Shown piece by piece: positions 2-13,514 of a DNA stretch of 13,832 nt. The DNA comes from an uncultured Bacteroidales bacterium. Its GTDB lineage: Bacteria > Bacteroidota > Bacteroidia > Bacteroidales > UBA932. Location: NCBI GenBank assembly GCA_946408295.1, contig CAMJRT010000013.1, positions 1 to 13,832 on the forward strand, read 5' to 3'. Position numbers and translations under genes: made by a program. The notes under the pieces were generated by a model that searched no databases, was not told the origin of the DNA, and was given only the letters and a program-made list of their open reading frames with translations. Positions within the stretch are counted from its first letter, which is position 1. Each line of letters begins with the position of its first letter.

Positions 2-532
2 TATCACTTCTGGAAGCATTATCCCCGTGTTGCGGATGCTTCTAAACCGCAACAAAGGGAGTTCAGTGGGATTAACATTTTGCTTCAAGATGTAGCGAGT
101 GATGAGATGGTGCAACCCTATGGGCCGGATTACTATGCAACGCGTCCGCTTGAAAAGTCGCCGGACTACACCAGAGATTATCGCACAAACATTGATAATA
201 GCGCGACTCACCCCGAGTGGTATTTTTATGGTTCGGCTCTCTGGAGAAGAAGTTTTGATATGTGGAACGAACCCGTGCTGATGTTCCGTACGGACGCCGT
301 CTATGACCGGGGGACAGAGTATTCCACCAGGACATTAGGCGGGCACAATCTTACCCTGGTGGCAGAAATAGAAGAGTTTGTCAACTTTGCCAACGAAGAC
401 GAACTCGCTGATTCACAAACAACAGCATATGCCTATAAAACGGCAAATGGAAGGGATTGGGCCGGCGGCGAACTATATTTGGACGGCACCAAGTATACCA
501 TCCCGACCTGGCGTGAGGCTTGGAAAAAATAA
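2..532 (+). CDS. Partner lipoprotein family, C-terminal part (5' end outside window)
   Basis: The open frame starts at base 2 and gives the last 176 residues of a protein that begins outside the window. I do not recognise the family. It is a paralogue of the C-terminus of the next gene. Both contain the sequences (Y/H)FW-HYP, ILLQDVA, (D)MWNEPVLMFR and VYDRG-EYST in the same order, and both end in a short W-rich, basic tail. The DNA of the two copies shares a 20-nt identical run (257-276 and 2746-2765), so they look like a tandem duplication or have exchanged sequence. It lies 14 nt upstream of the next gene and is surely co-transcribed with it. By analogy with its paralogue it should be a lipoprotein, but its signal peptide is not visible here. 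Function unknown; I infer a partner of the MACPF proteins downstream from position only. Confidence 0.9.
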   Translation, partial: YHFWKHYPRVADASKPQQREFSGINILLQDVASDEMVQPYGPDYYATRPLEKSPDYTRDYRTNIDNSATHPEWYFYGSALWRRSFDMWNEPVLMFRTDAVYDRGTEYSTRTLGGHNLTLVAEIEEFVNFANEDELADSQTTAYAYKTANGRDWAGGELYLDGTKYTIPTWREAWKK

Positions 533-546
533 CAAACAATATCATT

Positions 547-3033
547 ATGAAAAAGACATTCTTTAGCATTACTTTGCTGGCTGCCGTGGCGATAGCCCTG
601 GGAGCCTGCCGGAAAGAGCCCGGCGCGGAAGAGCAGAACAACAAGCGGGAATCCGCCCCGCAAGAAGCAAGCGCGACCCAGTATTGGGACGTGGTGGGTC
701 AACTGGTCGCGGGGGCCGATATCACGGACGACTACAAGGGCAAGACTTTTGAGCCGGTGATTGGCGTCGAGGATCCGTCCGATCCGCAGGCACGCATCGT
801 AGCCACCAACTCCCGGGCGGCGGCAGCCAAAAGTTTTGCCGACTTGATTGGCGTAAACAACATTGACGAGAACACCGTCAGTTACTCCTGGAGCAACGAG
901 GAGGTGGGTAAACTCACCTATACGGCGGGAAGCAACACGGCGTGGGCCGAAGTGAAGGTGGAGATTCCGTCCGTCCCCCACCTGTCCAAAATCATCTACC
1001 GCTCGCCGGATCAGGGAGACACCAACGCCTCCTTCGAAGGCAGCGCCTACTATCGTTTTGGCGATGTCATCAGTCGTCCCATCGCGAACGGGCTGGAGGA
1101 ATACTGGGTATGCGTACGTCCGGCCTTCAGCCCGGAAGGGAAAGGGGAGACGCACTGGATGAGCATTGGTAATTTGCCGGACGATAATATCTGGACATAC
1201 ACGAGCAGTCACAACAAAGAATACGCGTTTCCTACCGGCCTGAAGACCAGCAAGGAACATATGCAGAACCTGGCGGAGATGCTCTATGCCCTGTGTTTCC
1301 CCGAAATGTGGATGATAAACGTTTCGCAATACAGCACCGTAGGATTTTTCGGCAGCCCCGGTGGTTTGCCCATCTTCCACGATTTCAGCAAAAACAATAT
1401 GGGGTATCACAATGCATTTTTCTGGAGTAATGTGGCTCATTACTGGCGTGAGAAGGGTATTGACCAACTGCTGTTCGGGCGCAGTCTGGATGCTATTGCC
1501 GGTGAGATAGAGGGCAACGGCCTTCACTTCCTCTACAAGGGCTATTCCTGGTGGACCCCGACATCCAATTATGCCACGGTGTATCAGGCCCGGTTCGTGA
1601 ATACGCCGGGAGGCGTGAACGCCAATATGCAGACAAAATCTCCTTACACGGACCAGAAAGTGCAGATGGTTTACAAGGACCAGCCGCAAAAAGATGTGGA
1701 GTTTGACGTGCGCAATGTACATTATGTGGTGAATATGCCTTTCTTTGGAGACCAGAGTCCCCGCTATATCCTCCGGTATGCCACAGGTGCCGAACTTTCC
1801 TCGACCGGCAGGTATTCCGATGTACACGAAGCCATTCCCGGTACAAAGGATGTTTACCGCTACTATAAGGATGTGTTGCCGGTGGAGGATTTGGTCAATC
1901 ACGAGCCGGAGATGACCGATACGAAAATTGTGAACAATCGCAATCAACAGAACATATCCAGTTTTGCCGGAATCGCCCACTACAAAGTGGGAAGTGTTTA
2001 TAAAGATGAAACGGACAAACTGTGGTTTGTGGTGAATATGGCGGGTGCCAATCACACCTTAAGCAATGCGTGTGAACTCGCACCATTCACGGAACTGGTC
2101 TCCTTCAGCGGACTGACCCGTATGCAGCAGACCGAATATATAAGCGGCCTGCCTACCTTTGAAAAGGCTGTACGGGCCGTCACCTCTATGCACGGTATTC
2201 TTTTCAATGGTCTTTCGGAAGCATACCAGCCTGGGATAGCGATGAAAGACCTCCCCATTTCAGCCGCTGTGATACGATTCTTGTCAGAAAATGCCGGCGT
2301 GGACATCTCGCGCCTTTTCCAAGTCGTGAAGCCCTACAGCGATGTTCCGCGCAACTACACGCATATGACCGCTTTCGCCTACAGCAACCCGGAGGTCAAC
2401 CTGATCGGCCAGGCTGTGGGCCGGTATCTGTATCCGATCGACCTCAGCAACGAAAACCCGCCGCGCTACTTCTGGCAGCATTATCCCAGCAATCCCAGTG
2501 TGCTCAATCAGACCTACGACTCTTTTAGCAAGGATTACATTCTCCTTCAGGATGTGGCCGATGCGAACAAGGTGAAGATCTATGCCCCCGACCTGTACGC
2601 GACCAAGGGATTCCATCCGTCGCAGGCAACCCACGGGCGGACGGAGGATGCAAGGGAAATCCGTTCTCAAACGGAGCCTCAGGCGATGTACCCCGAAACC
2701 TATTTATACAACAAAGCGAAATGGAACGAATACAAGTATCTGACCGATATGTGGAACGAACCCGTACTGATGTTCCGAGTGGATGCCGTCTATGACCGGG
2801 GTGACGAATATTCCACCATTACGGAGAACGGTCACAGACTTACGCTGGTAAAGGAATTCCCCTATGACTACCGTTTCCCTGTCCAAGGAGATGAACTGAA
2901 AGAGACGAAAGCGACAATCATTGGCACTTTTTATGCCTACAAATCAAGCATCTGGATAGATCGGGAAAACATGCACAAGGACAACACGCCGAATTATTAT
3001 CCGGATTGGCAAAGCGTATGGAGCAGAAGATAA
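547..3033 (+). CDS. Large surface lipoprotein of unknown family, putative MACPF partner
   Basis: An 828-residue protein starting at the ATG at 547, chosen because it begins a classic lipoprotein signal: MKKT, a hydrophobic run, then lipobox LGAC with acceptor Cys21. A TTG 27 nt upstream stays in frame but would overlap the previous gene. After Cys21 the sequence is charged (RKEP, then AEEQ), compatible with a Bacteroidota surface-export signal. Residues about 60-165 (GKTFEP at 65-70, VEIP-VPHL-KIIYR at 138-152) form a domain shared with the 393-residue protein at 7267-8448. Residues about 640-828 (MWNEPVLMFR near 735, VYDRG near 748) match the partial gene at the left edge. The middle is aromatic-rich and repeats a WVCV/WFVV-type strand, perhaps two related beta domains. 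I see no catalytic motif. It is not a MACPF protein, as it lacks the GTH...GG signature. Its place just before a MACPF gene, 5 nt away, suggests an accessory or receptor-binding subunit. That is inference. Confidence 0.93.
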   Translation: MKKTFFSITLLAAVAIALGACRKEPGAEEQNNKRESAPQEASATQYWDVVGQLVAGADITDDYKGKTFEPVIGVEDPSDPQARIVATNSRAAAAKSFADLIGVNNIDENTVSYSWSNEEVGKLTYTAGSNTAWAEVKVEIPSVPHLSKIIYRSPDQGDTNASFEGSAYYRFGDVISRPIANGLEEYWVCVRPAFSPEGKGETHWMSIGNLPDDNIWTYTSSHNKEYAFPTGLKTSKEHMQNLAEMLYALCFPEMWMINVSQYSTVGFFGSPGGLPIFHDFSKNNMGYHNAFFWSNVAHYWREKGIDQLLFGRSLDAIAGEIEGNGLHFLYKGYSWWTPTSNYATVYQARFVNTPGGVNANMQTKSPYTDQKVQMVYKDQPQKDVEFDVRNVHYVVNMPFFGDQSPRYILRYATGAELSSTGRYSDVHEAIPGTKDVYRYYKDVLPVEDLVNHEPEMTDTKIVNNRNQQNISSFAGIAHYKVGSVYKDETDKLWFVVNMAGANHTLSNACELAPFTELVSFSGLTRMQQTEYISGLPTFEKAVRAVTSMHGILFNGLSEAYQPGIAMKDLPISAAVIRFLSENAGVDISRLFQVVKPYSDVPRNYTHMTAFAYSNPEVNLIGQAVGRYLYPIDLSNENPPRYFWQHYPSNPSVLNQTYDSFSKDYILLQDVADANKVKIYAPDLYATKGFHPSQATHGRTEDAREIRSQTEPQAMYPETYLYNKAKWNEYKYLTDMWNEPVLMFRVDAVYDRGDEYSTITENGHRLTLVKEFPYDYRFPVQGDELKETKATIIGTFYAYKSSIWIDRENMHKDNTPNYYPDWQSVWSRR

Positions 3034-3038
3034 AAAAT

Positions 3039-4796
3039 ATGACTATGAACCATTTGAAAACATTGCAGGCTGCTGCAGCCGTTATTCTGGCTGCAGCCGC
3101 CCTGTTCTCCTGCCAGAAAGGTACGGAGAACCCGGAAGACCAGGTAAGCACGGTGGCCATTGACGATAAGCTCAATACCCGTGGTGTCGAAACCGATATG
3201 CAGAGTGCCGTGATTGACGTTCCCGTCCGGTGCGACGGCCAGTGGCACGTCACCGTTTCCCAGGGGACCCCTCACTGGATGCGCATCGAAGGTTGGAACG
3301 TCGTGTATGACGGCGATGCCACCCTGACGCTCATCATTGACGAAAACCTCTCCAAAGTGGACCGAAGCGCTCAGCTCCGGATTACGAACAATGTGGGCGA
3401 ATTGGTACAGACCATCCCTGTCACCCAGTTCTACAACTACAATGGAGAGGCGCCCGACAACGGAAGCGGCCAGGCCTTTGCCGACAAAGGATTGGGTACC
3501 GCCATCGCCTACGACTATGCCCTGAACCTGAAGCAGATGGTCAATATGAATCCCAATGATTACCAGGCATCCAAGGTTCATCTGCTGAACAATGTGCTGA
3601 ATTTTGCCCGCATCGACGATTGGATGTCCCGGGGGATTATGCAGAAATCGACCTATGTAGAGGCCCCTATCCCGGTGTCCAATTTCCAGGCCATCCTCCT
3701 GGACAGTTGCCTGGTGCAGAACAAGACTCTGGAAGTTTCTTTGGACCTGAGCATAGAGTTTGGCCCGCTCTGCGTAAAAGGACACGGAAAGTACAATTCC
3801 ACCCGCGAGGAGTCGCGCGCCCACGTGGATTACTCCATCATCCGGCACGCACCTATGTACAATGTATACATCTCTCCCGCAGAACTTTCGGCCTTCGCAA
3901 GCGACGCCCGTTACAACAAGGTGGACTTCGATGCGGATGATGCGGCCTTCGCGATGGTTGATGAGACCATCCTGCGCTACCAACGCTACAATCAGCGCAC
4001 CAAGAAAACCAACCTCAACTACCGTGGCCTTACCGAAGACCAGGAGATTGAGGTGAGCAGTATGGAGGCCGCCATCAATCTCCGTTACGACCACGCCGGC
4101 GTCTATTCCACCGCCTTCAACGAGCGCTACAACGAACTCTATAATGCCATTGTCCGTCGCAAGCAGCAGGGTAAGGAAGTGAATATGTCTGAATTGGAGC
4201 CCATCCTGGGAGCGCTCGACAGCGAGTTCGGTCCGTTTATCATCGCCGGCGGAGACTACGGCGGTGCGATGTTCCTCCACTGCGCGATTGACACGATGAA
4301 GTTGGACGGTCACGCCAAGTTCGAGGGAAAAATTGCGGCGGAATTTGCCGGAATCGGCAATTTTGAAGGAAGTGTCGATTACTCGGAAGAAGGTTACAGC
4401 CTGCTTCGCGACTCCGACACGGACATCAAGATTCTGGGCGGCAGCGCCAATGAGACCGCCGACAAGATGATGGATTGCATCGCCAGCGGCAATGCGACAG
4501 ACCTGGGCAACTGGCAGCAGTTGCTGGTGGAATGGGTGCAGTCTATGTACTCCGGCAGCACTCCCGACAAACCGTTCGAAGGCAAGCCCAATGTGAGCAA
4601 GGCAGTCCCCATCTCCTTTACCATTACGCCCATCTGGACCTTCATCCGCGAGGCGGAAATCCAGCAAGTCGTAAAGGACTACTTTATGGAGGCCTACCGT
4701 TCACGCGGAATCGGCAACTACTTCGGCATTATGGAGGGCTCCGACAATCCGGGCGCCGAGAATTTTATGAACCTTTACAAGGGATACTGGGATTAA
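3039..4796 (+). CDS. BACON-like + MACPF domain lipoprotein, likely pore-forming subunit (MACPF-1)
   Basis: A 585-residue lipoprotein. ATG at 3039 or 3045 gives a good signal peptide with lipobox LFSC (Cys25 from 3039); an in-frame ATG at 3006 would overlap the previous gene by 28 nt and spoil the signal. Residues about 36-131 are BACON-like: beta-strands, a WHVTVSQG segment, an SAQLRI strand and a final VTQF. Residues about 152-540 form the MACPF core: start motif LGTAIAYDY, signature FGPFIIAGGDYGG at 397-409, a following GGS, and closing PIWTF around 533. The signature has the exact spacing of perforin (FGTHFI-x5-GG), but Thr-His is replaced by Pro-Phe. The two hairpin regions look membrane-competent, with strict polar/apolar alternation at about 230-241 (TLEVSLDLSIEF) and a Gly-rich strand at about 430-449. 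It lies 5 nt after the previous gene and 6 nt before the next, so it is an operon member. I infer an outer-surface pore former. Target (bacterial competitor or host cell) is unknown. Confidence 0.9.
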   Translation: MTMNHLKTLQAAAAVILAAAALFSCQKGTENPEDQVSTVAIDDKLNTRGVETDMQSAVIDVPVRCDGQWHVTVSQGTPHWMRIEGWNVVYDGDATLTLIIDENLSKVDRSAQLRITNNVGELVQTIPVTQFYNYNGEAPDNGSGQAFADKGLGTAIAYDYALNLKQMVNMNPNDYQASKVHLLNNVLNFARIDDWMSRGIMQKSTYVEAPIPVSNFQAILLDSCLVQNKTLEVSLDLSIEFGPLCVKGHGKYNSTREESRAHVDYSIIRHAPMYNVYISPAELSAFASDARYNKVDFDADDAAFAMVDETILRYQRYNQRTKKTNLNYRGLTEDQEIEVSSMEAAINLRYDHAGVYSTAFNERYNELYNAIVRRKQQGKEVNMSELEPILGALDSEFGPFIIAGGDYGGAMFLHCAIDTMKLDGHAKFEGKIAAEFAGIGNFEGSVDYSEEGYSLLRDSDTDIKILGGSANETADKMMDCIASGNATDLGNWQQLLVEWVQSMYSGSTPDKPFEGKPNVSKAVPISFTITPIWTFIREAEIQQVVKDYFMEAYRSRGIGNYFGIMEGSDNPGAENFMNLYKGYWD

Positions 4797-4802
4797 TCCG
4801 AT

Positions 4803-7265
4803 ATGCGGTCTCCGCATCATATCGCCCTGATAGGACTTCTTCTGGCGGCAGGCCTGGGTGTCTGCTGCCAAAAGGAGGTTCCTGCCGTAGATACAAACAA
4901 ACTGAAAGTTGTTTTCCTGGGTGGTTCTCCCGCCCGGGAAGACGGCGTTCCGGTCCTTCCCTTCCGGGCCAGTTATGAGTCCGTGAAAGTGGGGCTCAGC
5001 GGCACGGACGCCTCCACAGGAGAGATTTATATACAGAGCAATGCCTCCTGGCTTACGGTGTCGTCCGAGACCCTGGCGGCAGACGGTATGATGACCCTCA
5101 AGACCCGGACCAACCCGAGCGGACGGCGTCGGGAGGCCACCCTCACCTTTACAGATGCCGCCAATCCCTCGCGCAGGGCCGGACTGCGCCTGGTGCAGTT
5201 GTCCTCCAGCGACTCGGACGAAAATGCCGACGCCGCCCGCGAGCAACTGTATGTGGGGTATGGGTACGACATCTATAAGGCCCTGGAAAGTCCGATGGCG
5301 GTCCGCACGCGGATGCCCGTATTGGACTATCCTTATATGGTCCGGCACTTGAACCTGGCGGAGAAATACCAGTTGATACAAGACTGCCACCTGAGCCGTC
5401 TGGATGTCAACTATGTGAATGCCGCCAACATCCACGCATACGGCAGGGACCTGAGTTACCTGCAAACCGAAGACAAGAACAATATCTTTGAAGGCTGCAC
5501 GGACGACTGCAACACGCTTGTGAAATTGCTGCGTTCCTCCAGCGAAGACTTGGACCAGCACAACTACGGGCACGGCTCCCTGGAAAAGGCCGTTGCGTCG
5601 CGCATCATCGACCGGGCCGCCATCATCGACCTGAAGCGGGAGGGAAGAGTCCCCTACTCGGACGCCTTCTCCACGCGCCTGTTCGAATGCCGCCGCGCCG
5701 CCGGTGAAACCCGCCGGCAACTTATCGAGTCCGTGCTGACGGAGTTCGGCACGCACGTGATTCTGCAGGTGGACCTGGGCGGCCGCATAGACTATTCCTT
5801 CACGATGCGCAAATCGGCCACCTTCAACAGCAAGGAGGAAATAGAACAGGAAGTGGACTATACGCTGGGAAGGATTGCCGGCGTCGACCGTACGGGCAAG
5901 AACCAGGCGCCGTCCACCCCCAAGACTCCCGTAGTGACCTCGCAGGGAGAGGCCATCAACGCCATCGCGGTGCGCGGCGGCGGCGCGGCCCAGATAAGAG
6001 CGCTGGAACAGGAAATCGGTGAACTCTCTGCCAGCGGACAGATAGACCCGGCCCGTATCACGGACTGGCTGGCGTCCATCAATTACAGCGAGCATTTTCA
6101 GGGAGACCCTGCGCTGGACGTGATTCATTTCGAACTCATTCCCCTGTGGGACCTGGTGCCGGACGATGTCCGGCCGGACTTTATGAGCGTTACGTTTGCC
6201 CTCGGACAACGCTCGGACAATGTCCTTCCGGACAGTTTCACCGGAATGGATATCTACCCGATAGACCCGCAAGGCGCGGATAAAGCGCTCTTTACTTTCC
6301 CCGGGGAAGGAGAGGGCAGCCTGTGCCGCATCCTGTATATCGCGGGAGAGCCCGTATTGGAAGTGTGCTCCGAGTATGTACCCCGGATTCGCTCGGACAA
6401 GCGCGTCACCATCGCCTATCCCATCTACCGGCAGGGCATCCGGATGAACCAGGGCATTTTCCCGGGCGACGGCACGCATCGGCCGGCTTATGTGGCCTTC
6501 AGCGGAGGAGACTGCTTCGTGAACCCGTTCCCGGATTTGCCCCCGGACACCATACTGGACCGATTCTGGTATGTGAACGGCAATCTGATGCTGGAAAATC
6601 CCACCGACCTCCCTCCCCAGAGCCGCAAGGAACGGGAAGCGAGGGACGACCTGTTCTACTTCCTGGCACCCCGGGAAACATACAGCCATCCCATCGTGAA
6701 GGTGGGGGCCAATTTCTGGACACGGAAGGACATCGGACACCCGATGGGATTCAGCGAAAATCCCCATTCGGGGTATCTGTATTTTGACGAACTGGTGGAA
6801 GGGGGCGTCCTGTACACCCGCTCCGATTTCCAGGTCAACGACATCATTATGGAAGACAACGACTGGATCTGGGGGAGTGAGCGACGCTGGTATATGCCCA
6901 CCTCGGCAGAAGTGAAAGACCTGGAGTCCTTCCTGGGCTTCAACCCCAAAGCCCTGTTTCCGGGACAACTTTCCGGCTACGACGCCCGCTTCAACGGTTA
7001 TTGGGGCATCAGCGACGTGCTGAACGGTCGTTCCGCCTTCCCGGACCATCGAATGGACCTGCGGTACAAGGGGCAACTACACCTGTTTTCCGTGGTGGAC
7101 AACGGCGGTGACAATCCCCAACTCCTGATACTGGACAAGAATTATCGCCTGACCCGCTACGATGCATTGGGCGACTGGCACGAAGATTATTATCCCGTGC
7201 GTCCGGTACGCAGTTACAAGTATGAATATCCCAAACTGGAAATCATAAAAAAACACATAAACTAA
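4803..7265 (+). CDS. BACON-MACPF-FISUMP-like multidomain lipoprotein (MACPF-2)
   Basis: An 820-residue lipoprotein starting 6 nt after MACPF-1. The signal peptide ends in LGVC-C (Cys21). Residues about 28-132 form a BACON-type domain (NASWLTVSSE, RREATLTF, final RLVQ). Residues about 150-453 are the MACPF core: VGYGYD near 150-156, canonical FGTHVILQVDLGG at 315-327, a GGG turn, and closing ELIPLWDLV around 449. The FGTH...LGGRI stretch is very close to vertebrate perforin. A middle domain about 460-620 resembles the C-terminal part of MACPF-3 (AYPIY near 539). Residues about 630-810 look like a FISUMP domain (Fibrobacter succinogenes major paralogous domain): VKVGANFWTRKDI, RRWYMPTSAEVKDLESFLG around 694-712, GYDARFNGYWG, and final YYPVRPVR. 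FISUMP domains occur on Bacteroidota and Fibrobacterota surface proteins with unproven ligands. I infer that this subunit combines membrane attack with target recognition. The FISUMP call is by eye and is the less certain part. Confidence 0.92.
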   Translation: MRSPHHIALIGLLLAAGLGVCCQKEVPAVDTNKLKVVFLGGSPAREDGVPVLPFRASYESVKVGLSGTDASTGEIYIQSNASWLTVSSETLAADGMMTLKTRTNPSGRRREATLTFTDAANPSRRAGLRLVQLSSSDSDENADAAREQLYVGYGYDIYKALESPMAVRTRMPVLDYPYMVRHLNLAEKYQLIQDCHLSRLDVNYVNAANIHAYGRDLSYLQTEDKNNIFEGCTDDCNTLVKLLRSSSEDLDQHNYGHGSLEKAVASRIIDRAAIIDLKREGRVPYSDAFSTRLFECRRAAGETRRQLIESVLTEFGTHVILQVDLGGRIDYSFTMRKSATFNSKEEIEQEVDYTLGRIAGVDRTGKNQAPSTPKTPVVTSQGEAINAIAVRGGGAAQIRALEQEIGELSASGQIDPARITDWLASINYSEHFQGDPALDVIHFELIPLWDLVPDDVRPDFMSVTFALGQRSDNVLPDSFTGMDIYPIDPQGADKALFTFPGEGEGSLCRILYIAGEPVLEVCSEYVPRIRSDKRVTIAYPIYRQGIRMNQGIFPGDGTHRPAYVAFSGGDCFVNPFPDLPPDTILDRFWYVNGNLMLENPTDLPPQSRKEREARDDLFYFLAPRETYSHPIVKVGANFWTRKDIGHPMGFSENPHSGYLYFDELVEGGVLYTRSDFQVNDIIMEDNDWIWGSERRWYMPTSAEVKDLESFLGFNPKALFPGQLSGYDARFNGYWGISDVLNGRSAFPDHRMDLRYKGQLHLFSVVDNGGDNPQLLILDKNYRLTRYDALGDWHEDYYPVRPVRSYKYEYPKLEIIKKHIN

Positions 7266-7266
7266 G

Positions 7267-8448
7267 ATGAAAAGAGTGATAGTTTGCCTGATGGCCGCCG
7301 TGGTGCTGGTCGTGGTTGCAGGATGCCGGAAAAGCAATCTGCCGGACGGAGGGGAGGACGATTCCGCTCTTGAGCAGAAGGAACGCGAAGCCTTTGCTAT
7401 CCAGAATGTTTTGGAGGCGCTGACGGACGAGTCCTTTGACGAGGAAGAGGAGGCTGACTTTGTATTTGAAGGGAAGACCTTCGAGCCTACCATCGGAGAT
7501 GTCCGGGACGAGAGCGCTCCCTTCGAAAGAAGTGTGTTTGTGGAAGACGCTTCGCTGGCGGAACAGTACTTCCGAGCGCTGGTGGGCGACAACGGCTTCG
7601 TGTCGGAGACGGCGGACGGACTGGTCATCGACCTCACCCGGCTCAAACTGGGCAAGTTGACCTTCCACCGCGAAGGGGATGGGGACAACTCCGGGTATGT
7701 CCGGGTGGAGATTCCCTGCATCCCGCATCTTACCAAAATCATCTACCGTACGGAAGACCAGTGGGGAAGCAACAGTTTCAACTCTCCGTGCCGCCGGGGC
7801 GATGTGTACTTCGGCGAGGGCGTTTACTGGGTTTGCGTCAAAGAGAGCCGGAGTAAGATGAATCCCGGAACGCTGGTGAATATGGCCGCCGGCAAAGGCC
7901 GGCTGTACTATAACAGATGGAGTGAACTGTGGGATCCCAATCACGGCAGCGGTCACGACCTGAACTGCCGCGTCAACGACATCAGCGACTACCTGCTCCT
8001 CTGTTCGGACAGTAATATCTATGCCCGGAAAAAGAAAAAAATCGTGGAACAACTGCCCAATGAAGTTTTCCCTTTCGCCTGCTATTCCCAGGATGCCAAA
8101 AGTCAGTATTTCCAGAGCCTTGACCGGGATGGATTCGCTACGGAGAATTTTGACTACAGCCATTGGAGCGACTATTCCCCGGGCCGCTACAAAAAAGTCG
8201 TCATCGTCCTGGGCGCCAAGCACGGAAAATACAAACTCTTCAAAGGCAAAAAGCGCTATTGCCAGTATGTGCGCATTTCCCCGAAGTGCGTCAACAATGA
8301 CGGTTACTGCTTTGACGATAAGGGCTACTACGGAAACGGGGAAAAGGATAAACTCTATGATTTCCTGAACGAGAGTTTCGTGTACACGATGAACAGCGTA
8401 CATTTTACGGACAGGGTTCCCCAGGGCTTCACGCTCGTGAATCTTTAG
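7267..8448 (+). CDS. Short partner lipoprotein sharing the N-terminal domain of the 547-3033 protein
   Basis: A 393-residue protein whose ATG lies 1 nt after the MACPF-2 stop. The signal peptide ends in VAGC (Cys20), and an acidic stretch follows (GGEDD, later DEEEEAD), consistent with export to the cell surface. Residues about 66-165 match the 828-residue protein: GKTFEP at 69-74, an LGKLTFH strand, VEIPCIPHLTKIIYR at 147-161, then a WVCV strand. The large C-terminal half of the long paralogue is absent. Here the C-terminal 200 residues are different, lysine-, tyrosine- and aspartate-rich, with VVIVLGAKHGKYKLFKGKK as a basic segment. The reading frame is intact and packed against both neighbours, so this is a real short family member and not a decayed copy. 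Function unknown. The alternation of this family with MACPF genes suggests that it pairs with MACPF-3, whose gene starts 2 nt after its stop. Confidence 0.92.
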   Translation: MKRVIVCLMAAVVLVVVAGCRKSNLPDGGEDDSALEQKEREAFAIQNVLEALTDESFDEEEEADFVFEGKTFEPTIGDVRDESAPFERSVFVEDASLAEQYFRALVGDNGFVSETADGLVIDLTRLKLGKLTFHREGDGDNSGYVRVEIPCIPHLTKIIYRTEDQWGSNSFNSPCRRGDVYFGEGVYWVCVKESRSKMNPGTLVNMAAGKGRLYYNRWSELWDPNHGSGHDLNCRVNDISDYLLLCSDSNIYARKKKKIVEQLPNEVFPFACYSQDAKSQYFQSLDRDGFATENFDYSHWSDYSPGRYKKVVIVLGAKHGKYKLFKGKKRYCQYVRISPKCVNNDGYCFDDKGYYGNGEKDKLYDFLNESFVYTMNSVHFTDRVPQGFTLVNL

Positions 8449-8450
8449 TA

Positions 8451-10217
8451 GTGAAAACCTTCTTTCATCTTTTAACCCTTCTGGGTTTGACGGTCCTGCC
8501 GTGGGGCTGCCGGAGCCTGGCGTTGGAGATTCCCCCGGTTCCGGAGAAGGAGATCGCCCCTGAGTGGATGCCGGAAGGCGGCTACGAGTGGGTGAAGGCC
8601 GCCGATGTGGAGACCCGCGAACTGTTCCGCCGCAACTACGGACTGGGTTACTCCTACAATGCGGTACACGGGGACTATTGCAATTGGAAAGACATCCGCT
8701 GCCAGGTGCTCAACCGTTTTTACCTGCAGAACATGCAGGACGCCAGCGGTGAGAAACTCATCGTGGAGAGCACCGCCAAATATTCTTCCATCGCCTCCGA
8801 GTTCGACTATTCCTTCCGGGACTATGTGGCCAATGTGGCCGTCGAGACCAGGCAGAAGATAGATTTGGGACTGTATGAGAGCGAAAAGCGCAACAGGCAG
8901 TATTTCCTGGAGAACGGCGTTCAGGAGACGTTCTACTACACCTTGGACGAAAAAGAGATTTTGGTGGACAGTTATGTCAGTTACGCCAGCGTGCTTTCCC
9001 GTTATTCCCGGAACCCGAACGTGTTCACGGAAAGTTTCCGCAATGCGGTGGAACACCTGAGGCTTACCCCCGACGACAATGTGGCCGCGGTGGACTCGAT
9101 GCTGAACGTGTGGGGCACCCACGTCATCGTAAGCGCTTGCCTGGGGGGACGCCTGCGGGTGGACTTGATGAACAGCATCTGGCGCTACAATGACAAATCC
9201 AGCGAAGAAGCGTGGAGCAGCAAGGAATTTCTGCAGGCGGTGCAGGAAAAGCAGAAGAGCCGCGTGGAGGAAGAGTTTGTCTGGCTGAAAGACTGCCGCC
9301 TCAGGCTCCAGGCCTGGGGAGGTGACCAGAGTTATCTGACCGGTCTGCTGGGAGAGCACAAGCCGGACGGTTCGCGCACGTTTTCCCTGGATGGGATTTC
9401 GTCCTGGCGCACCTCCCTGGTTTTCGATGCGGCGGACGAACTGAATTCCAATGTCGAACTGGTCGATATGGAGGTGATTCCCATCTGGGAATTTGCCGCC
9501 GTGGTGGACCCGTGGCAGGCGATGCGCATCAAAGCCGCGGTCACCCAGGATGCCGCCCTGATGCAAAAGTTGCTGGGCGATGTCAATTTCTTCAATGTGA
9601 CCTTCCCCATCCGCTATCCTTCTGCCTCCTGCCAGTGGAGAAAGGACACGGGAACGTGGGAAACGTTTACCCGGACCGACACCGGGGACGCGCCGCAAGT
9701 GGTGAATGTCGAAAGCGGCGGCCGCTATATGGCTACCGTCTGCCACGAGAACATCGACGGGCACGACCTCTGGGTGTGCTATCCTGTTTATGAAGGGAAG
9801 GTGAACCTGGCCTGCGGACTGGGCGTGGAGAACAGCAGCGTATTCAAAGTGCGCTGGATTGGAGATACGCCTACGCTTATCTATCAGGAAGGGGTTACGG
9901 CGACCGATACCTTCTACATTACATCCGGCGGCGTGGGCGTAGAGCCCGTAGAGGATGTGGTTTACGCCCCGGGGCACGCCCTGCCCTATATCGAACTCAG
10001 CGGAGGCGTCCGGCCGGACGGCAGTTATTCCTCGCAGGCCTACCGCGTCTTCAAGGAGGCCGGACACTTTGTCCTGCCGGTGCAGGCATCCGTCCGTCCG
10101 GAAGACATCGCGGGCTGGAATGAGTACACGACCATCGCCGCCGACCGGTGGGTTTTCGCCCGCAACCCGGACTACACCTACCTCTACAACGCTAACGAGA
10201 TTCGGTTTATTCCGTAA
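8451..10217 (+). CDS. MACPF domain lipoprotein without BACON domain (MACPF-3)
   Basis: A 588-residue lipoprotein with a GTG start at 8451, only 2 nt after the previous stop. The start is supported by the signal peptide MKTFFHLLTL with lipobox PWGC (Cys20). The MACPF core follows almost at once: GLGYSYN at 64-70, canonical WGTHVIVSACLGG at 221-233, WGGD turn, and closing EVIPIWEF around 346. There is no room for a BACON domain. The segment after the signature, where the second membrane hairpin should lie, is very charged (EKQKSRVEEEF, WLKDCRLRL), unlike the Gly-rich strand of MACPF-1, so membrane insertion by this subunit is doubtful. Residues about 380-588 form a beta-rich C-terminal domain with a segment like MACPF-2 (CYPVY near 444). 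It is the last gene of the operon and is followed by a strong terminator. I infer a non-inserting or regulatory member of a hetero-oligomeric MACPF complex. An alternative is an independent toxin. Confidence 0.92.
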   Translation: MKTFFHLLTLLGLTVLPWGCRSLALEIPPVPEKEIAPEWMPEGGYEWVKAADVETRELFRRNYGLGYSYNAVHGDYCNWKDIRCQVLNRFYLQNMQDASGEKLIVESTAKYSSIASEFDYSFRDYVANVAVETRQKIDLGLYESEKRNRQYFLENGVQETFYYTLDEKEILVDSYVSYASVLSRYSRNPNVFTESFRNAVEHLRLTPDDNVAAVDSMLNVWGTHVIVSACLGGRLRVDLMNSIWRYNDKSSEEAWSSKEFLQAVQEKQKSRVEEEFVWLKDCRLRLQAWGGDQSYLTGLLGEHKPDGSRTFSLDGISSWRTSLVFDAADELNSNVELVDMEVIPIWEFAAVVDPWQAMRIKAAVTQDAALMQKLLGDVNFFNVTFPIRYPSASCQWRKDTGTWETFTRTDTGDAPQVVNVESGGRYMATVCHENIDGHDLWVCYPVYEGKVNLACGLGVENSSVFKVRWIGDTPTLIYQEGVTATDTFYITSGGVGVEPVEDVVYAPGHALPYIELSGGVRPDGSYSSQAYRVFKEAGHFVLPVQASVRPEDIAGWNEYTTIAADRWVFARNPDYTYLYNANEIRFIP

Positions 10218-10267: not shown

Positions 10268-10301
10268 AAAATCGATTGTGTCAGAACACACAATCGATTT
10301 T
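10268..10301 (+). terminator. Rho-independent terminator of the MACPF operon
   Basis: A perfect 14-bp inverted repeat (AAAATCGATTGTGT and its complement ACACAATCGATTTT) with a 6-nt loop, CAGAAC, lies 51 nt after the MACPF-3 stop. The stem ends in a T run on the plus strand and an A run upstream, so it could terminate transcription from both sides. No other gene follows for 245 nt, which fits an operon end. Confidence 0.85.
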
Positions 10302-10404
10302 ATAGGATTACGCTATCAATCAGCGGATTGTCCGCCACCTTCACTATATTCCAAGCCCCAGACACACTGGATGGAACGCCACCTGGACATTTCAAATGTG
10401 TCTT

Positions 10405-10419
10405 TTGTAGCGGGAGTGG
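10405..10419. repeat. 15-nt direct repeat TTGTAGCGGGAGTGG, left copy
   Basis: Identical to 13606-13620. It corresponds to the acceptor-strand part and the T-stem end of the tRNA-like fragment. The pair brackets 3.2 kb holding hipBST, the ATPase and both 3'-tail elements. Confidence 0.65.
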
Positions 10420-10444
10420 GTCACGATCCCACGACCTCCGGATT
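10409..10444 (-). other. tRNA-like 3' fragment (possible attachment-site remnant)
   Basis: Read on the minus strand, this has the layout of a tRNA 3' half: ATAATCCGGAGGTC (3' side of an anticodon arm plus variable loop), a 5-bp T stem GTGGG/CCCAC around a 7-nt loop ATCGTGA, then an acceptor strand TCCCGCTA. It resembles elongator tRNA-Met or a similar class. The T loop departs from the usual TTCRANY, and no 5' half (acceptor strand or D arm) is present next to it. It is therefore a fragment and not a working tRNA. Such 3' fragments are commonly left by integration into tRNA genes. No integrase gene is in the window. Confidence 0.5.
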
Positions 10445-10463
10445 ATATCCCATCGGATATAAT
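10442..10463. repeat. Perfect 9-bp inverted repeat ATTATATCC/GGATATAAT
   Basis: The two 9-nt arms (10442-10450 and 10455-10463) are exact reverse complements around the loop CATC. The left arm overlaps the end of the tRNA-like fragment. There is no T run, so it is not an obvious terminator. It could be a recombinase or regulator binding site. The TATCC/GGATA halves resemble those of the E. coli HipB operator, but the spacing is 4 nt instead of 8. Confidence 0.5.
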
Positions 10464-10503: not shown

Positions 10504-10519
10504 TTTGAAAAATTCTTCG

Positions 10520-10527
10520 TATATTTG
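10520..10527 (+). promoter_or_regulatory. hipBST promoter -7 box (TATATTTG)
   Basis: An exact match to the Bacteroidota -7 consensus TAnnTTTG, 19 nt before the hipB start codon. No good TTTG -33 box sits at the usual 19-21 nt spacing; a TTTG at 10504-10507 is too close. The would-be -33 region is covered by operator O1, and the -7 box overlaps operator O2, so HipB binding should block polymerase. Confidence 0.65.
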
Positions 10528-10544
10528 CATCCGAACGAATGTAA
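10525..10544. promoter_or_regulatory. Candidate HipB operator O2 (TTGCAT-N8-ATGTAA)
   Basis: A second copy of the O1 pattern with one mismatch in the left half and the same 8-nt spacer. It overlaps the end of the -7 box and stops 2 nt before the hipB ATG. Its centre is 41 bp from that of O1, close to four helical turns, so two repressor dimers could bind the same face of the DNA. The right half also forms an 11-bp inverted repeat with O1 (10484-10494 with 10534-10544). Confidence 0.55.
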
Positions 10545-10546
10545 TT

Positions 10547-10753
10547 ATGAATAGCAACATCATCTCTTCAACGTTGAAAACCCTCCGGAAGGAGCACGGT
10601 CTCACGCAAGTGGACTTAGCGATGAAGTCCGGCGTGGGCCTGAACTTCGTACGCGAATTGGAGCAGGGCAAGGCGACGGCCCGAATGGACAAAGTCGCCC
10701 AAGTGTTTGATTTGTTCGGCTATGAACTCGTCCCTCAAAAGAAAGTGAAATGA
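10547..10753 (+). CDS. hipB: Xre-family HipB-like antitoxin/repressor
   Basis: A 68-residue protein starting at ATG 10547; a longer frame from a TTG at 10505 would place the start inside the promoter and is rejected. It is almost entirely one Xre helix-turn-helix domain: LKTLRKEHGLTQVDLAMKSG with recognition-helix region VGLNFVRELEQGKATA, then MDKVAQVFDLFGYEL, typical of HipB. Its stop overlaps the start of the next gene by 4 nt (ATGA), a translational-coupling arrangement. In HipBA and HipBST systems this protein binds operators and the kinase complex and represses the operon. In HipBST it supports the neutralising role of HipS without being the main antitoxin. The upstream paired operators fit autoregulation. 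Confidence 0.88.
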   Translation: MNSNIISSTLKTLRKEHGLTQVDLAMKSGVGLNFVRELEQGKATARMDKVAQVFDLFGYELVPQKKVK

Positions 10754-11082
10754 GTAAGGCATTAATACAATACAAAGGGAATAATGCCGGCATCCTCGAA
10801 GAAACGGATGAAGGCTATGAGTTCCGGTATAATCAGGAGTATCTTTCAGATGCGGCGGCGAAGCCCGTCAGTCTGACACTTCCTTTGTCGGAGAAGCCCT
10901 ACAAGTCTTCGGTCTTATTCCCGTTCTTTGACGGCCTTATTCCGGAAGGCTGGTTGCTGGATGTAGCGCTAAGAAATACGGATATCAGTGAACTGGACCG
11001 GTTCTCCCTGCTTCTTCTCTGCTGCAAAGACTGCATCGGCGCAGTAAGTGTAATTCCCATAAACGATGACAGTGATGAGTAA
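10750..11082 (+). CDS. hipS: HipA N-terminal-domain protein, HipS-like antitoxin
   Basis: A 110-residue protein matching the N-terminal subdomain of HipA (Couple_hipA): VSLTLPLSEKPY, then FPFFDGLIPEGWLLD, then a DRFSLLLLCCKDCIGAVSVIP end. In classical HipA this piece is fused to the kinase; here it is a separate gene. That is the layout of the tripartite HipBST system of E. coli O127:H6, where HipS neutralises the kinase HipT. The gene overlaps hipB by 4 nt and the kinase gene by 8 nt, so all three are translationally coupled. By homology, HipS here should be the antitoxin. The stop codon lies in a different frame from the next gene, so this is a true split, though the two genes are nearly contiguous. 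Confidence 0.85.
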   Translation: MSKALIQYKGNNAGILEETDEGYEFRYNQEYLSDAAAKPVSLTLPLSEKPYKSSVLFPFFDGLIPEGWLLDVALRNTDISELDRFSLLLLCCKDCIGAVSVIPINDDSDE

Positions 11083-12001
11083 GTGTTTATATTGCTACAA
11101 GGAACTCGAAGCCGGAGAAGTCGATTTCCATAAATCCTGCTGCCGGAAGTTCTTCGGGACGGCCACGGCTCCTTCATTGGATTATACGCGTGCGCAGATG
11201 GACGGACTTGCCGCCCAGATTATCCAGTCGCAGACCACCCTGACCGGCGTCCAACCCAAACTGTCGCTGAATCTGGATAAGCATAAGGATTCCCAGAAAC
11301 TCACGATTGTGGGTCTTTGGGGTGATTTTATCTTCAAGCCGCAGACGGAACGCTTTGCAATGCTGCCCGAGAATGAAGATTTGACGATGCATCTGGCCGA
11401 GATAGCCAAGATAAAGGTCGTACCCCATACGCTCATCCGGATGAAAGATGGAAGCATCGGCTACCTGACCAAGCGGATTGACCGAAAAGCAGACGGAGAG
11501 AAGATTGCGATGGAAGATATGTGCCAACTTACCGAACGCCAGACCGAGCATAAGTATCGGAGTTCTTACGAGCAGGTGGGAAAGGCCATTCGGAAGTATT
11601 CTGCCAACGCACAGTTGGATATGGTTGATTTTCTGGAATGGGTGTATTTTTCCTGGCTTACCGGGAACAACGATATGCATCTGAAGAACTTTTCCTTGTA
11701 TTCTCCTGCCGGCGAGCCTGTCCTCACACCGGCCTACGACCTGTTGAATGCCGTATTGAGCAATCCTGCCGACGACGAGGAGTTGGCACTCAATCTCAAT
11801 GGGAAAAAGAAACGGATGAAGGATGTTGACTTCAAGGCCGCATATCGTACTTGTGGCGTTCCCGAAATCGTTTTCGACCGTTTGAAAAAGAAGTATGTGG
11901 CTCTCCTTCCCAAATTTGAGGAAGAGATTCATCTCTCGTTCCTCTCTGATGAACTCAAAGCTTCATATATTGAGTTGCTTCACCGCAGACTGGAAAAATA
12001 A
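11075..12001 (+). CDS. hipT: HipA C-terminal domain kinase, HipT-like toxin
   Basis: A 308-residue protein from the ATG at 11075; an ATG at 11066 adds three residues and remains possible. It opens with a small Cys/His cluster (C4-x2-C7 ... H19-x2-C22-C23) that could bind zinc. The Gly-rich loop is TLTGVQPKLS at 55-64, the segment that carries autophosphorylation sites in HipA and HipT (Ser-x-Ser in E. coli O127:H6 HipT). Both positions are threonine here. The ATP-binding lysine is likely K88 in FIFKP, the catalytic aspartate D200 in GNNDMHLKNFSL, and the metal-binding aspartate D222 in PAYDLLN, so the kinase appears intact. Known relatives phosphorylate aminoacyl-tRNA synthetases (HipA acts on GltX, HipT on TrpS) and stop growth. 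The target here cannot be told. A 74-nt repeat element begins at its stop codon. Confidence 0.9.
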   Translation: MSKCLYCYKELEAGEVDFHKSCCRKFFGTATAPSLDYTRAQMDGLAAQIIQSQTTLTGVQPKLSLNLDKHKDSQKLTIVGLWGDFIFKPQTERFAMLPENEDLTMHLAEIAKIKVVPHTLIRMKDGSIGYLTKRIDRKADGEKIAMEDMCQLTERQTEHKYRSSYEQVGKAIRKYSANAQLDMVDFLEWVYFSWLTGNNDMHLKNFSLYSPAGEPVLTPAYDLLNAVLSNPADDEELALNLNGKKKRMKDVDFKAAYRTCGVPEIVFDRLKKKYVALLPKFEEEIHLSFLSDELKASYIELLHRRLEK

Positions 12002-12135: not shown

Positions 12136-12164
12136 CACCATCCAAAATATTGGAAAAGGTGACT

Positions 12165-13514
12165 ATGAGACGAAAAATTTACGACAAGCTGCTTCAGTGG
12201 AAGCAAGAGAAAAACGGCACTACAGCCCTTCTGATTGAAGGTGCACGCCGAATTGGGAAGAGTTGGATTGCCGAGGAATTCGCACGCAATGAATACGAAT
12301 CCTATATTCTGATAGATTTCAGCAAAGCGCCTCTGCGGGTAAAAGATTGGTTCGATGAGTATTTGGAAGATATTGACACATTGCTCGAGAACATTCAGTT
12401 GCATTACAAGAAGCGCCTGACACCGCGTCGTTCCCTCATTATCTTTGACGAGGTTCAGAAATGCCCCCGTGCTCGCGAGGCCATCAAGTCTTTGGTACAA
12501 GACCATCGTTTCGACTATCTGGAAACCGGCTCCCTTATCTCCATCAAGAAAAATGTCGAGAATATCGTCATCCCTTCCGAGGAGGATGGTATCGATATGT
12601 ACCCGATGGATTTTGAAGAGTTCCTATGGGCTATGGGTAACGAGGTGCTGATGCCCTACATCCAGCGGCAATTTGAGAATAGCAAGCCGATGGGTGAGTT
12701 TCATCGCGAAGCAATGCATTATTTCCGTCAGTATCTCATCGTGGGCGGCATGCCCCAGGTGGTTGCGGAATATGCCACATCCCGGGACTTCAAGAAAGTG
12801 GATGCGATTAAGCGCCAGATACTGCGCTTATATAAAAATGACATCAAGAAATATGCAGGAGGGCTTACGGCCCGCGTATCGGCCATTTACGATTCCATCC
12901 CGGGCCAACTTCAAAAAAAAGAGAAGAAATTTGTCCTGGCCGCGCTAAAAGACGAGGCTCGGATGCGTGAATACGACAGTGCATTCTTTTGGCTGGAAGA
13001 TGCCAAACTTGCCAACATTTGCTACAATACTACAGCCCCCAACATCGGCCTGCAACTCAACGAAGACCGCACTGCCCTCAAGTGCTATTTCTGCGACACA
13101 GGCCTTCTCATCTCCCTGGCATTCAACGCCCGTGGTATTGTCTCCAACGAGATTTATCAGAAACTGATGTTCGATAAATTGGAGATTAACGAAGGTATGC
13201 TGGTCGAGAATATCGTAGCCCAGATGCTCAAGGCTGCCGGCAATGAACTCTTTTTCTATTTGAATGCGGACAAGGAGGATGCCGACAACCGGATGCAAAT
13301 AGACTTCCTCATCCCCAAAAAGGTCGTCACTTCCCGCCACAATATATCCCCAATCGAGGTCAAGAGCGGCACAAATTACACTCTCACATCTATCAACAAG
13401 TGCATAAAAAAGTTCGGACCATACTTATCCACCCCTTACATCCTGCACTCTAAAGATTTAGAAATCAAAGATGGAATAGTATATCTACCCCTCTATATGA
13501 CAGCCCTTCTATAA
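12165..13514 (+). CDS. AAA_14/DUF4143-type ATPase with PD-(D/E)xK-like C-terminus
   Basis: A 449-residue protein from ATG 12165 (TTG at 12150 and GTG at 12159 are weaker in-frame options). The N-terminal AAA_14 domain has Walker A GARRIGKS at 26-33 and Walker B RSLIIFDEVQ with D95-E96, followed by a sensor-like LETGSLIS. The middle and C-terminal part is DUF4143, with YFRQYLIVGGMPQVV, then FLIPKK containing D380 and PIEVKSG with E398 and K400. D...E-x-K resembles the active site of PD-(D/E)xK nucleases, although nuclease activity is unproven in this family. These ATPases are abundant and variably present in Bacteroidota and are often near defence or mobile genes; their cellular role is not settled. 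It has its own promoter, and the same 3'-tail repeat as hipT follows directly at its stop codon. Confidence 0.9.
   Translation: MRRKIYDKLLQWKQEKNGTTALLIEGARRIGKSWIAEEFARNEYESYILIDFSKAPLRVKDWFDEYLEDIDTLLENIQLHYKKRLTPRRSLIIFDEVQKCPRAREAIKSLVQDHRFDYLETGSLISIKKNVENIVIPSEEDGIDMYPMDFEEFLWAMGNEVLMPYIQRQFENSKPMGEFHREAMHYFRQYLIVGGMPQVVAEYATSRDFKKVDAIKRQILRLYKNDIKKYAGGLTARVSAIYDSIPGQLQKKEKKFVLAALKDEARMREYDSAFFWLEDAKLANICYNTTAPNIGLQLNEDRTALKCYFCDTGLLISLAFNARGIVSNEIYQKLMFDKLEINEGMLVENIVAQMLKAAGNELFFYLNADKEDADNRMQIDFLIPKKVVTSRHNISPIEVKSGTNYTLTSINKCIKKFGPYLSTPYILHSKDLEIKDGIVYLPLYMTALL

What the first reader, a model, noticed from the sequence alone, without database searches (positions are those of the whole stretch)
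547..10217. Operon with three different MACPF lipoproteins interleaved with a partner family
Three adjacent genes carry a MACPF core with identical signature spacing (FGPF, FGTH and WGTH, each followed by x7-GG) and a closing P-(I/L)-W, yet they differ widely in domains around it. They are packed with gaps of 1-6 nt among three members of an unrelated lipoprotein family. Known Bacteroidales MACPF toxins (BSAPs) act as single genes with a target receptor. A multi-subunit, surface-anchored, hetero-oligomeric pore system would be new to me. It could attack competitors, act on host cells, or serve a non-lytic role.
Basis: partly seen in the sequence, partly recalled or inferred. Interest (0 to 1): 0.88.

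Follow-up and report, generated by a model that had tools for sequence, protein, structure and literature searches.

The report
Three-perforin gut bacterial operon with protease
Gut Bacteroidales, many of them from ruminant stomachs, keep three different perforin-like proteins together in one gene cluster with partner lipoproteins and, in most relatives, a legumain-like protease, which looks like a multi-part, possibly protease-triggered membrane-attack system that has not been tested.

Summary
Window 2-10217 is one co-directional run of six genes, A0(partial)-A1-M1-M2-A'-M3. M2 and M3 pass Pfam's MACPF cut-off; M1 does not, but its AlphaFold2 model is a BACON plus MACPF protein whose best PDB matches are MAC, pleurotolysin B and perforin-2 pores. 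The set is stable: in 24 loci found through M2, M1 is on the same contig in 22, M3 in 21, A-profile genes in 24; all 193 labelled genes point one way; M1/M2/M3 distances correlate at r 0.85-0.90. Y lies in the same run in 18 of 24 loci; C13 is in 23 of 24 carrier genomes, against 7 of 374 sampled Bacteroidales. In three of six compared pairs M1's MACPF core has been exchanged between otherwise similar operons. Best reading: a complement-like, multi-subunit, probably protease-activated MACPF system. Prior art (BT_3433-3442; two-component CDCLs, some in triplets) makes it a new variant, not a new kind. Surface display, complex, pore and target are untested.

The parts
2..532 (+). A0: C-terminal part of a partner-family (A) protein, cut by the window start
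   Evidence: A-profile 153 bits; 105 bits at A positions 704-833 with its first 45 residues removed; 44.8% identical to the A1 tail over 172 residues
547..3033 (+). A1: 828-aa partner lipoprotein; confident model with no PDB match found
   Evidence: no Pfam; pLDDT 89.7
3039..4796 (+). M1: lipoprotein, BACON (about 3150-3443) + MACPF (about 3462-4691); signature 4227-4265
   Evidence: alternative start ATG 3045
4803..7265 (+). M2: lipoprotein, BACON-like + MACPF (residues 277-455) + C-terminal region; signature 5745-5783
   Evidence: Pfam MACPF 46.3 bits; BACON 24.1 bits, just under its cut-off of 25; its profile hits perforin-1 (E 3.9e-4) and C8 beta (E 0.0089)
7267..8448 (+). A': 393-aa lipoprotein sharing the N-terminal A domain
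8451..10217 (+). M3: MACPF protein, GTG start, atypical lipobox, C-terminal region related to that of M2; signature 9111-9149
   Evidence: Pfam MACPF 24.7 bits; hhalign to M2 prob 98.2, E 5.4e-14
10268..10301 (+). 14-bp perfect hairpin just after M3, possible terminator of the unit
   Evidence: -16.9 kcal/mol, z -5.39; not listed by the consensus terminator scan

Best explanation
The locus encodes a multi-component MACPF attack system that works like the complement MAC. Shown: three different MACPF proteins (M1, M2, M3) are kept as one co-directional unit with A lipoproteins and, in most relatives, with X and Y, where Y is a type-1 periplasmic-binding (Venus-flytrap-type) domain fused to a legumain-like cysteine protease with intact His and Cys. 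Inferred: the lipoproteins reach the cell surface; A and M1 give binding or target specificity (they are the parts most often exchanged); Y, on sensing a ligand, cleaves one or more MACPF subunits (as a surface C11 protease does for the CDCL pairs); the three MACPFs then assemble into a mixed ring in which M1, whose two hairpin regions are modelled already extended, supplies membrane-spanning hairpins; the target is the outer membrane of neighbouring cells. X, A' or an A protein may protect the producer.
For: MACPF in all three. Gene order in 24 loci: 193 of 193 labelled genes on one strand, M1 in 21 of 24 as fetched (22 with L078), M3 in 21 of 24. M1-M2, M1-M3, M2-M3 distances correlate r 0.85, 0.90, 0.89, and X-Y 0.92. 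Full-length M1, M2 and M3 occur in the same 2 of 374 sampled genomes. C13: best profile hits are legumains, E 1.4e-39, with an mGluR-type binding-domain match ahead of it; His and Cys kept in 17 of 17 sequences that cover them; Y in the same run in 18 of 24 loci; C13 in 23 of 24 carrier genomes against 7 of 374 over 120 bits, 2 of the 7 being carriers. All 4 sampled genomes with clustered MACPFs have such a C13, against 3 of 370 others. Distant MACPF clusters beside Y: L045, L046, L055. Exchange in M1's MACPF core in 3 of 6 pairs and lower identity of A than M2 in 4 of the 5 pairs with a comparable whole A.
Against: No assay, no complex model. Fourteen fetched Y stretches have no MACPF (L047-L050, L052, L054, L056, L061, L062, L073-L077; L073 ends at a contig edge among A genes), so the protease may serve a wider lipoprotein system. 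M1-Y distances are loosely coupled (r 0.48). In the window no protease gene is present (HipBA follows M3); its upstream place is inferred from L053 and L034. One carrier genome (G376) has no C13. M1 is not more variable than M2 in 3 of 6 pairs. M2 and M3 TMH2 regions are more charged than M1's (0.26 and 0.34 against 0.21) and the alternation test is weak. The M1-M3 profile match alone is poor (prob 12). The window's five whole proteins carry at most one acidic residue at +2..+7 after the lipobox Cys, so the surface-export signal is weak here. Two 5-MACPF clusters (L063, L064) have no Y in the fetched stretch.
Confidence: 0.48

Rival explanations
1. An arsenal of three independent BSAP-like toxins, each with its own target, merely clustered; A proteins are immunity proteins or decoy receptors.
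For: M1, M2, M3 differ in flanking domains; BSAPs are described as acting alone, specificity lying in the C-terminal domain (PMC12853789, passages and section 9); M1 core, M3 C-terminal region (L020/L030) and A genes vary between close relatives.
Against: One of each kept in order in most of the 24 loci and matched divergence; an arsenal should gain and lose members singly. M1 is missing between A and M2 in L017, yet reappears on the same contig among A genes.
Confidence: 0.2
2. A non-lytic surface machine for uptake or adhesion, in which the MACPFs form a scaffold or large conduit and Y is a nutrient-sensing processing protease.
For: The authors of the B. thetaiotaomicron MACPF structure inferred a protein-transport or nutrient-uptake role from a similar cluster (PMC2954219, passages); periplasmic-binding fold in Y; charged TMH2 regions in M2 and M3; one MACPF-free X-Y locus (L056) has a GH115 glycosidase gene some 3 kb away on the other strand.
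Against: The units hold almost only A, M, X and Y genes, though transporters were not searched for specifically; M1 model in pore-like form; exchange of alleles fits conflict better than transport (inference).
Confidence: 0.22
3. Y is a transamidase or ligase, like GPI8 or plant asparaginyl ligases, that covalently joins the lipoproteins into a surface assembly rather than activating them by cleavage.
For: The Y profile also matches GPI transamidase (E 2.9e-35) and peptide asparaginyl ligases (E 1.5e-28); up to four labelled A genes stand upstream of M1.
Against: Closest matches are legumains (E 1.4e-39); no sorting motif was looked for.
Confidence: 0.1

Closest known systems
B. thetaiotaomicron BT_3433-BT_3442 cluster (Bth-MACPF, PDB 3KK7)
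   Different: Two paralogous MACPFs (33% identical), not three divergent families; predicted trefoil and porin genes; no protease is mentioned in the passages read
Bacteroidales secreted antimicrobial proteins (BSAPs)
   Same: Surface MACPF lipoproteins of Bacteroidales; BACON N-terminal domain in 35 of 214 representatives, 12 of them without a C-terminal domain, the architecture of M1 (PMC12853789 section 9)
   Different: Described as single toxins with one receptor; that survey drew on Pfam PF01823, which M1 does not hit
Two-component CDCL toxins of Bacteroidota
   Same: Multi-subunit, MAC-like, protease-activated, with an immunity lipoprotein gene in the operon; pairs and some triplets of adjacent genes (PMC11169675, passages)
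   Different: CDC-type (PF01289); the activating protease is of C11 type and not reported there as part of the operon, against a C13 in the run here
Complement membrane attack complex
   Same: Several different MACPF subunits; the best Foldseek matches of M1 are C5b8/C5b9 chains
   Different: Secreted, sequential assembly from C5b (recalled); membership not claimed
Legumain (peptidase C13)
   Same: Catalytic domain of Y, E 1.4e-39
   Different: Y carries a type-1 periplasmic-binding domain in front and a lipoprotein signal

Membership tests
MACPF superfamily (M2, M3) | Pfam PF01823 above cut-off | tested here: met
   M2 46.3 and M3 24.7 bits against 21.5
MACPF superfamily (M1) | Pfam PF01823 above cut-off | tested here: not met
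   no PF01823 hit at E up to 1
MACPF superfamily (M1) | MACPF fold | tested here: met
BSAP | Lipoprotein signal with surface-export (acidic) signal | tested here: inconclusive
   At least 2 acidic residues at +2..+7 in 16 of 25 M1, 24 of 32 M2, 20 of 26 M3 distinct proteins, a rough count as the pattern sometimes stopped at an earlier Cys; not in the window's own proteins; window M3 lipobox atypical
BSAP | Kills Bacteroidales with a matching receptor | not testable with these tools
   needs culture
CDCL two-component toxins | PF01289 domain | tested here: not met
   no PF01289 hit at E up to 1 in M1-M3
Complement-like hetero-oligomeric pore | Different MACPF subunits in one complex | not testable with these tools
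   only co-inheritance shown
Peptidase C13 (Y) | PF01650 with catalytic His and Cys | tested here: met
   128-156 bits against 22.8 in the eight Y proteins scanned; H in SGHGG and C in ETC[YF]SG in 17 of 17
BT_3433-3442-type cluster | Orthologous genes | not tested
   those sequences were not fetched

The most novel reading that the evidence does not exclude
A bacterial counterpart of the complement cascade: a fixed trio of different MACPF subunits that assemble into one mixed pore only after a dedicated, ligand-sensing legumain-type surface protease encoded in the same operon cleaves them, with an exchangeable A-M1 cassette that sets the target.
Probability: 0.27. Interest if true: 0.88.

Novelty: new variant of a known kind. 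Interest (0 to 1): 0.68.

Why it matters
BSAPs are described as single toxins, and the multi-component relative with known mechanism (CDCL) has two parts. A conserved three-MACPF unit coupled to its own sensor-protease would give a testable bacterial model of heteromeric MAC assembly and of proteolytic triggering, in Bacteroidales that come largely from ruminant stomachs. It also exposes a MACPF family (M1) that Pfam-based surveys miss, a confidently modelled protein family (A) with no PDB match found, and a legumain-type protease fused to a ligand-binding domain.

Tried and rejected

Counts of genome matches at E 1e-3 are larger than those quoted as strong: M2 19, M1 18, M3 6, C13 50 and MACPF 24 of 374. 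Of the 18 M1 genomes, the 16 others match only the N-terminal (BACON) end. The locus scan needs one of two short conserved peptides of M2, so distant relatives are missed.

Paper searches: MACPF with Bacteroidales, with Bacteroides/operon/lipoprotein, legumain/Bacteroidetes/C13 (67), MACPF/legumain, MACPF/rumen, Peptidase C13/Prevotella, legumain/Bacteroidales, MACPF/gene cluster/Bacteroidota/protease. No title or abstract start in these listings describes a three-MACPF operon or a MACPF-C13 pair; of the papers listed only five were opened, by passages or one section, and subscription papers and preprints are not held.

Full report
What is in the window. Reading frames on the + strand give A0 (2-532, open at the window start), A1 (547-3033), M1 (3039-4796), M2 (4803-7265), A' (7267-8448) and M3 (8451-10217), with gaps of 14, 5, 6, 1 and 2 nt. 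A1, M1, M2 and A' begin with a lipoprotein-type signal; M3 (GTG start) has an atypical lipobox that my pattern did not flag, and A0's start is not seen. The claimed MACPF signatures and P-x-W motifs are present in M1, M2 and M3. Pfam puts MACPF on M2 (46.3 bits) and M3 (24.7 bits; cut-off 21.5), and BACON on M1. A perfect 14-bp hairpin follows M3. Then come a HipB-like gene, a split HipA and an AAA_14/DUF4143 gene.

Neighbourhood. One scan of the species-genome collection with the M2 alignment gave 24 loci, which lie in 22 genomes (one search lists their handles). Labelled with profiles of A, M1, M2, M3, X and Y, all 193 labelled genes run in the direction of M2. A-profile genes are in 24 of 24, M1 in 21, M3 in 21, X in 17 and Y in 16 as fetched. 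With extended stretches, M1 is also on the L017 contig (L078, among A genes beyond Y), and Y also in the run on the L010 (L053) and L027 (L069) contigs: M1 22 of 24 and Y 18 of 24. In L028 a C13 domain lies on the same contig about 4 kb beyond the last A gene seen (G392:C87), not counted. Missing cases: L009 has a shortened M2 after unrelated genes; L023 and L029 end at contig edges, L012 after X; L026 is rearranged and lacks M1 and M3; L008 has Y-X-Y beside A genes on another contig (L073). The order is usually A(n)-M1-M2-A'-M3-X-Y; six loci have M1-M3-M2. In the window's nearest relatives the protease part is upstream: L053 plus L010, one contig, reads Y-X-Y-A-A-A-A-M1-M2-A'-M3 (the next gene, 52 nt on, has an AraC-type HTH), and L034 of G001 reads Y-X-Y-A-A.

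The protease. Y has a type-1 periplasmic-binding (ANF_receptor) domain and a Peptidase_C13 domain. Its profile hits legumains to E 1.4e-39 over 487-742 and metabotropic glutamate receptor 1 to E 3.4e-7 over 105-242. His in SGHGG and Cys in ETC[YF]SG are kept in 17 of 17 sequences that cover them. In 374 Bacteroidales-order genomes drawn by the tool, C13 above 120 bits occurs in 7, full-length M1, M2 and M3 in the same 2 and MACPF at E 1e-3 in 24. The four with clustered MACPFs (G001, G109, G291, G327) are all among the 7; the other three (G102, G256, G287) have no MACPF hit. Of 24 carrier genomes 23 have C13. Outside the main family, Y stands by two MACPFs in L045, three in L046, and two or three in L055 (one 21.3 bits in the protein scan, 23.4 in the genome search; one found only by the M1 profile); Y-X lies about 2.8 kb from one in L057, and in L068 Y-X-A precedes a weak MACPF match. 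But fourteen other Y stretches fetched show none (L047-L050, L052, L054, L056, L061, L062, L073-L077), so the X-Y module is not exclusive to MACPFs.

Evolution. Distances of M1, M2 and M3 across shared loci (21-23, the window included) correlate at r 0.85, 0.90 and 0.89; X-Y at 0.92; M1-Y at 0.48. Six operon pairs were compared. In three, M1 is much less alike than M2 (L015/L022 71.3 against 94.9%, L020/L030 62.0 against 92.3%, L011/L012 84.8 against 96.9%), mostly after the BACON part; in the other three (window/L010, L013/L014, L016/L019) it is not. Upstream A genes are less alike than M2 in window/L010, L011/L012, L016/L019 and L020/L030 and not in L013/L014; in L015/L022 the part of A at hand is 29% identical and may not be the same gene. 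In L020/L030 M3's C-terminal region and X differ too. Fourfold-site differences rise in the same blocks (L015/L022: 0.13-0.50 in the M1 core, mostly 0.35 or more, against 0.03-0.07 in its first 120 residues), which points to exchange of alleles rather than fast substitution alone (inference).

Mechanism. Shown: three co-inherited MACPF genes with A partners, and a linked sensor-protease in most relatives. Inferred: surface display, subunit assembly, protease triggering, attack on neighbour cells. The precedent for protease triggering and operon-borne protection is the CDCL work (PMC11169675, passages); the precedent for a multi-MACPF lipoprotein cluster is BT_3433-3442 (PMC2954219, passages), whose authors inferred transport or nutrient uptake. 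M1's hairpin regions contain alternating-hydrophobicity windows (p 0.002-0.0075, uncorrected), and M2 and M3 TMH2 regions are more charged: weakly, M1 would be the inserting subunit.

Habitat. Of the 24 record titles, ten name a ruminant or its stomach compartment, seven bear a RUG label (recalled: rumen uncultured genome) and seven say neither.

Verdict. Real, conserved and under-described; best filed as a new variant of clustered Bacteroidota MACPF systems, with the C13 link the most novel part.

Noticed in passing
window 10505-12001: HipB-like gene followed by a HipA split into an N-terminal (Couple_hipA, 110 aa) and a C-terminal (HipA_C) gene, the arrangement of three-gene HipBST systems (name recalled)
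   Followed up: partly
window 12150-13514: AAA_14/DUF4143 ATPase gene after the HipBA genes
   Followed up: no
window 10370-10450: Stretch that looks by eye like a tRNA 3' half on the minus strand, perhaps an old integration site; ARAGORN and Rfam list nothing
   Followed up: partly
L063 (G383 C64) and L064 (G387 C17): Clusters with PF01823 matches in five (G383 C64) and four listed (G387 C17) genes, plus a fifth M3-profile hit in the latter; no C13 hit on those contigs
   Followed up: partly
L052, L054, L074: Y beside a family of about 800-aa lipoproteins of unknown kind (A9, 33-34% identical) and a 313-335-aa lipoprotein: perhaps another effector set using the same protease
   Followed up: partly
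L045, L055, L057: MACPF proteins ending in a Fib_succ_major-like (FISUMP) domain, above its cut-off in one of the four that match; a possible binding domain
   Followed up: no
L026 (L067): Rearranged locus with M2 pieces, two X-Y pairs and no M1 or M3, in a genome (G392) with two further M1-M3-M2 loci (L065, L066)
   Followed up: no
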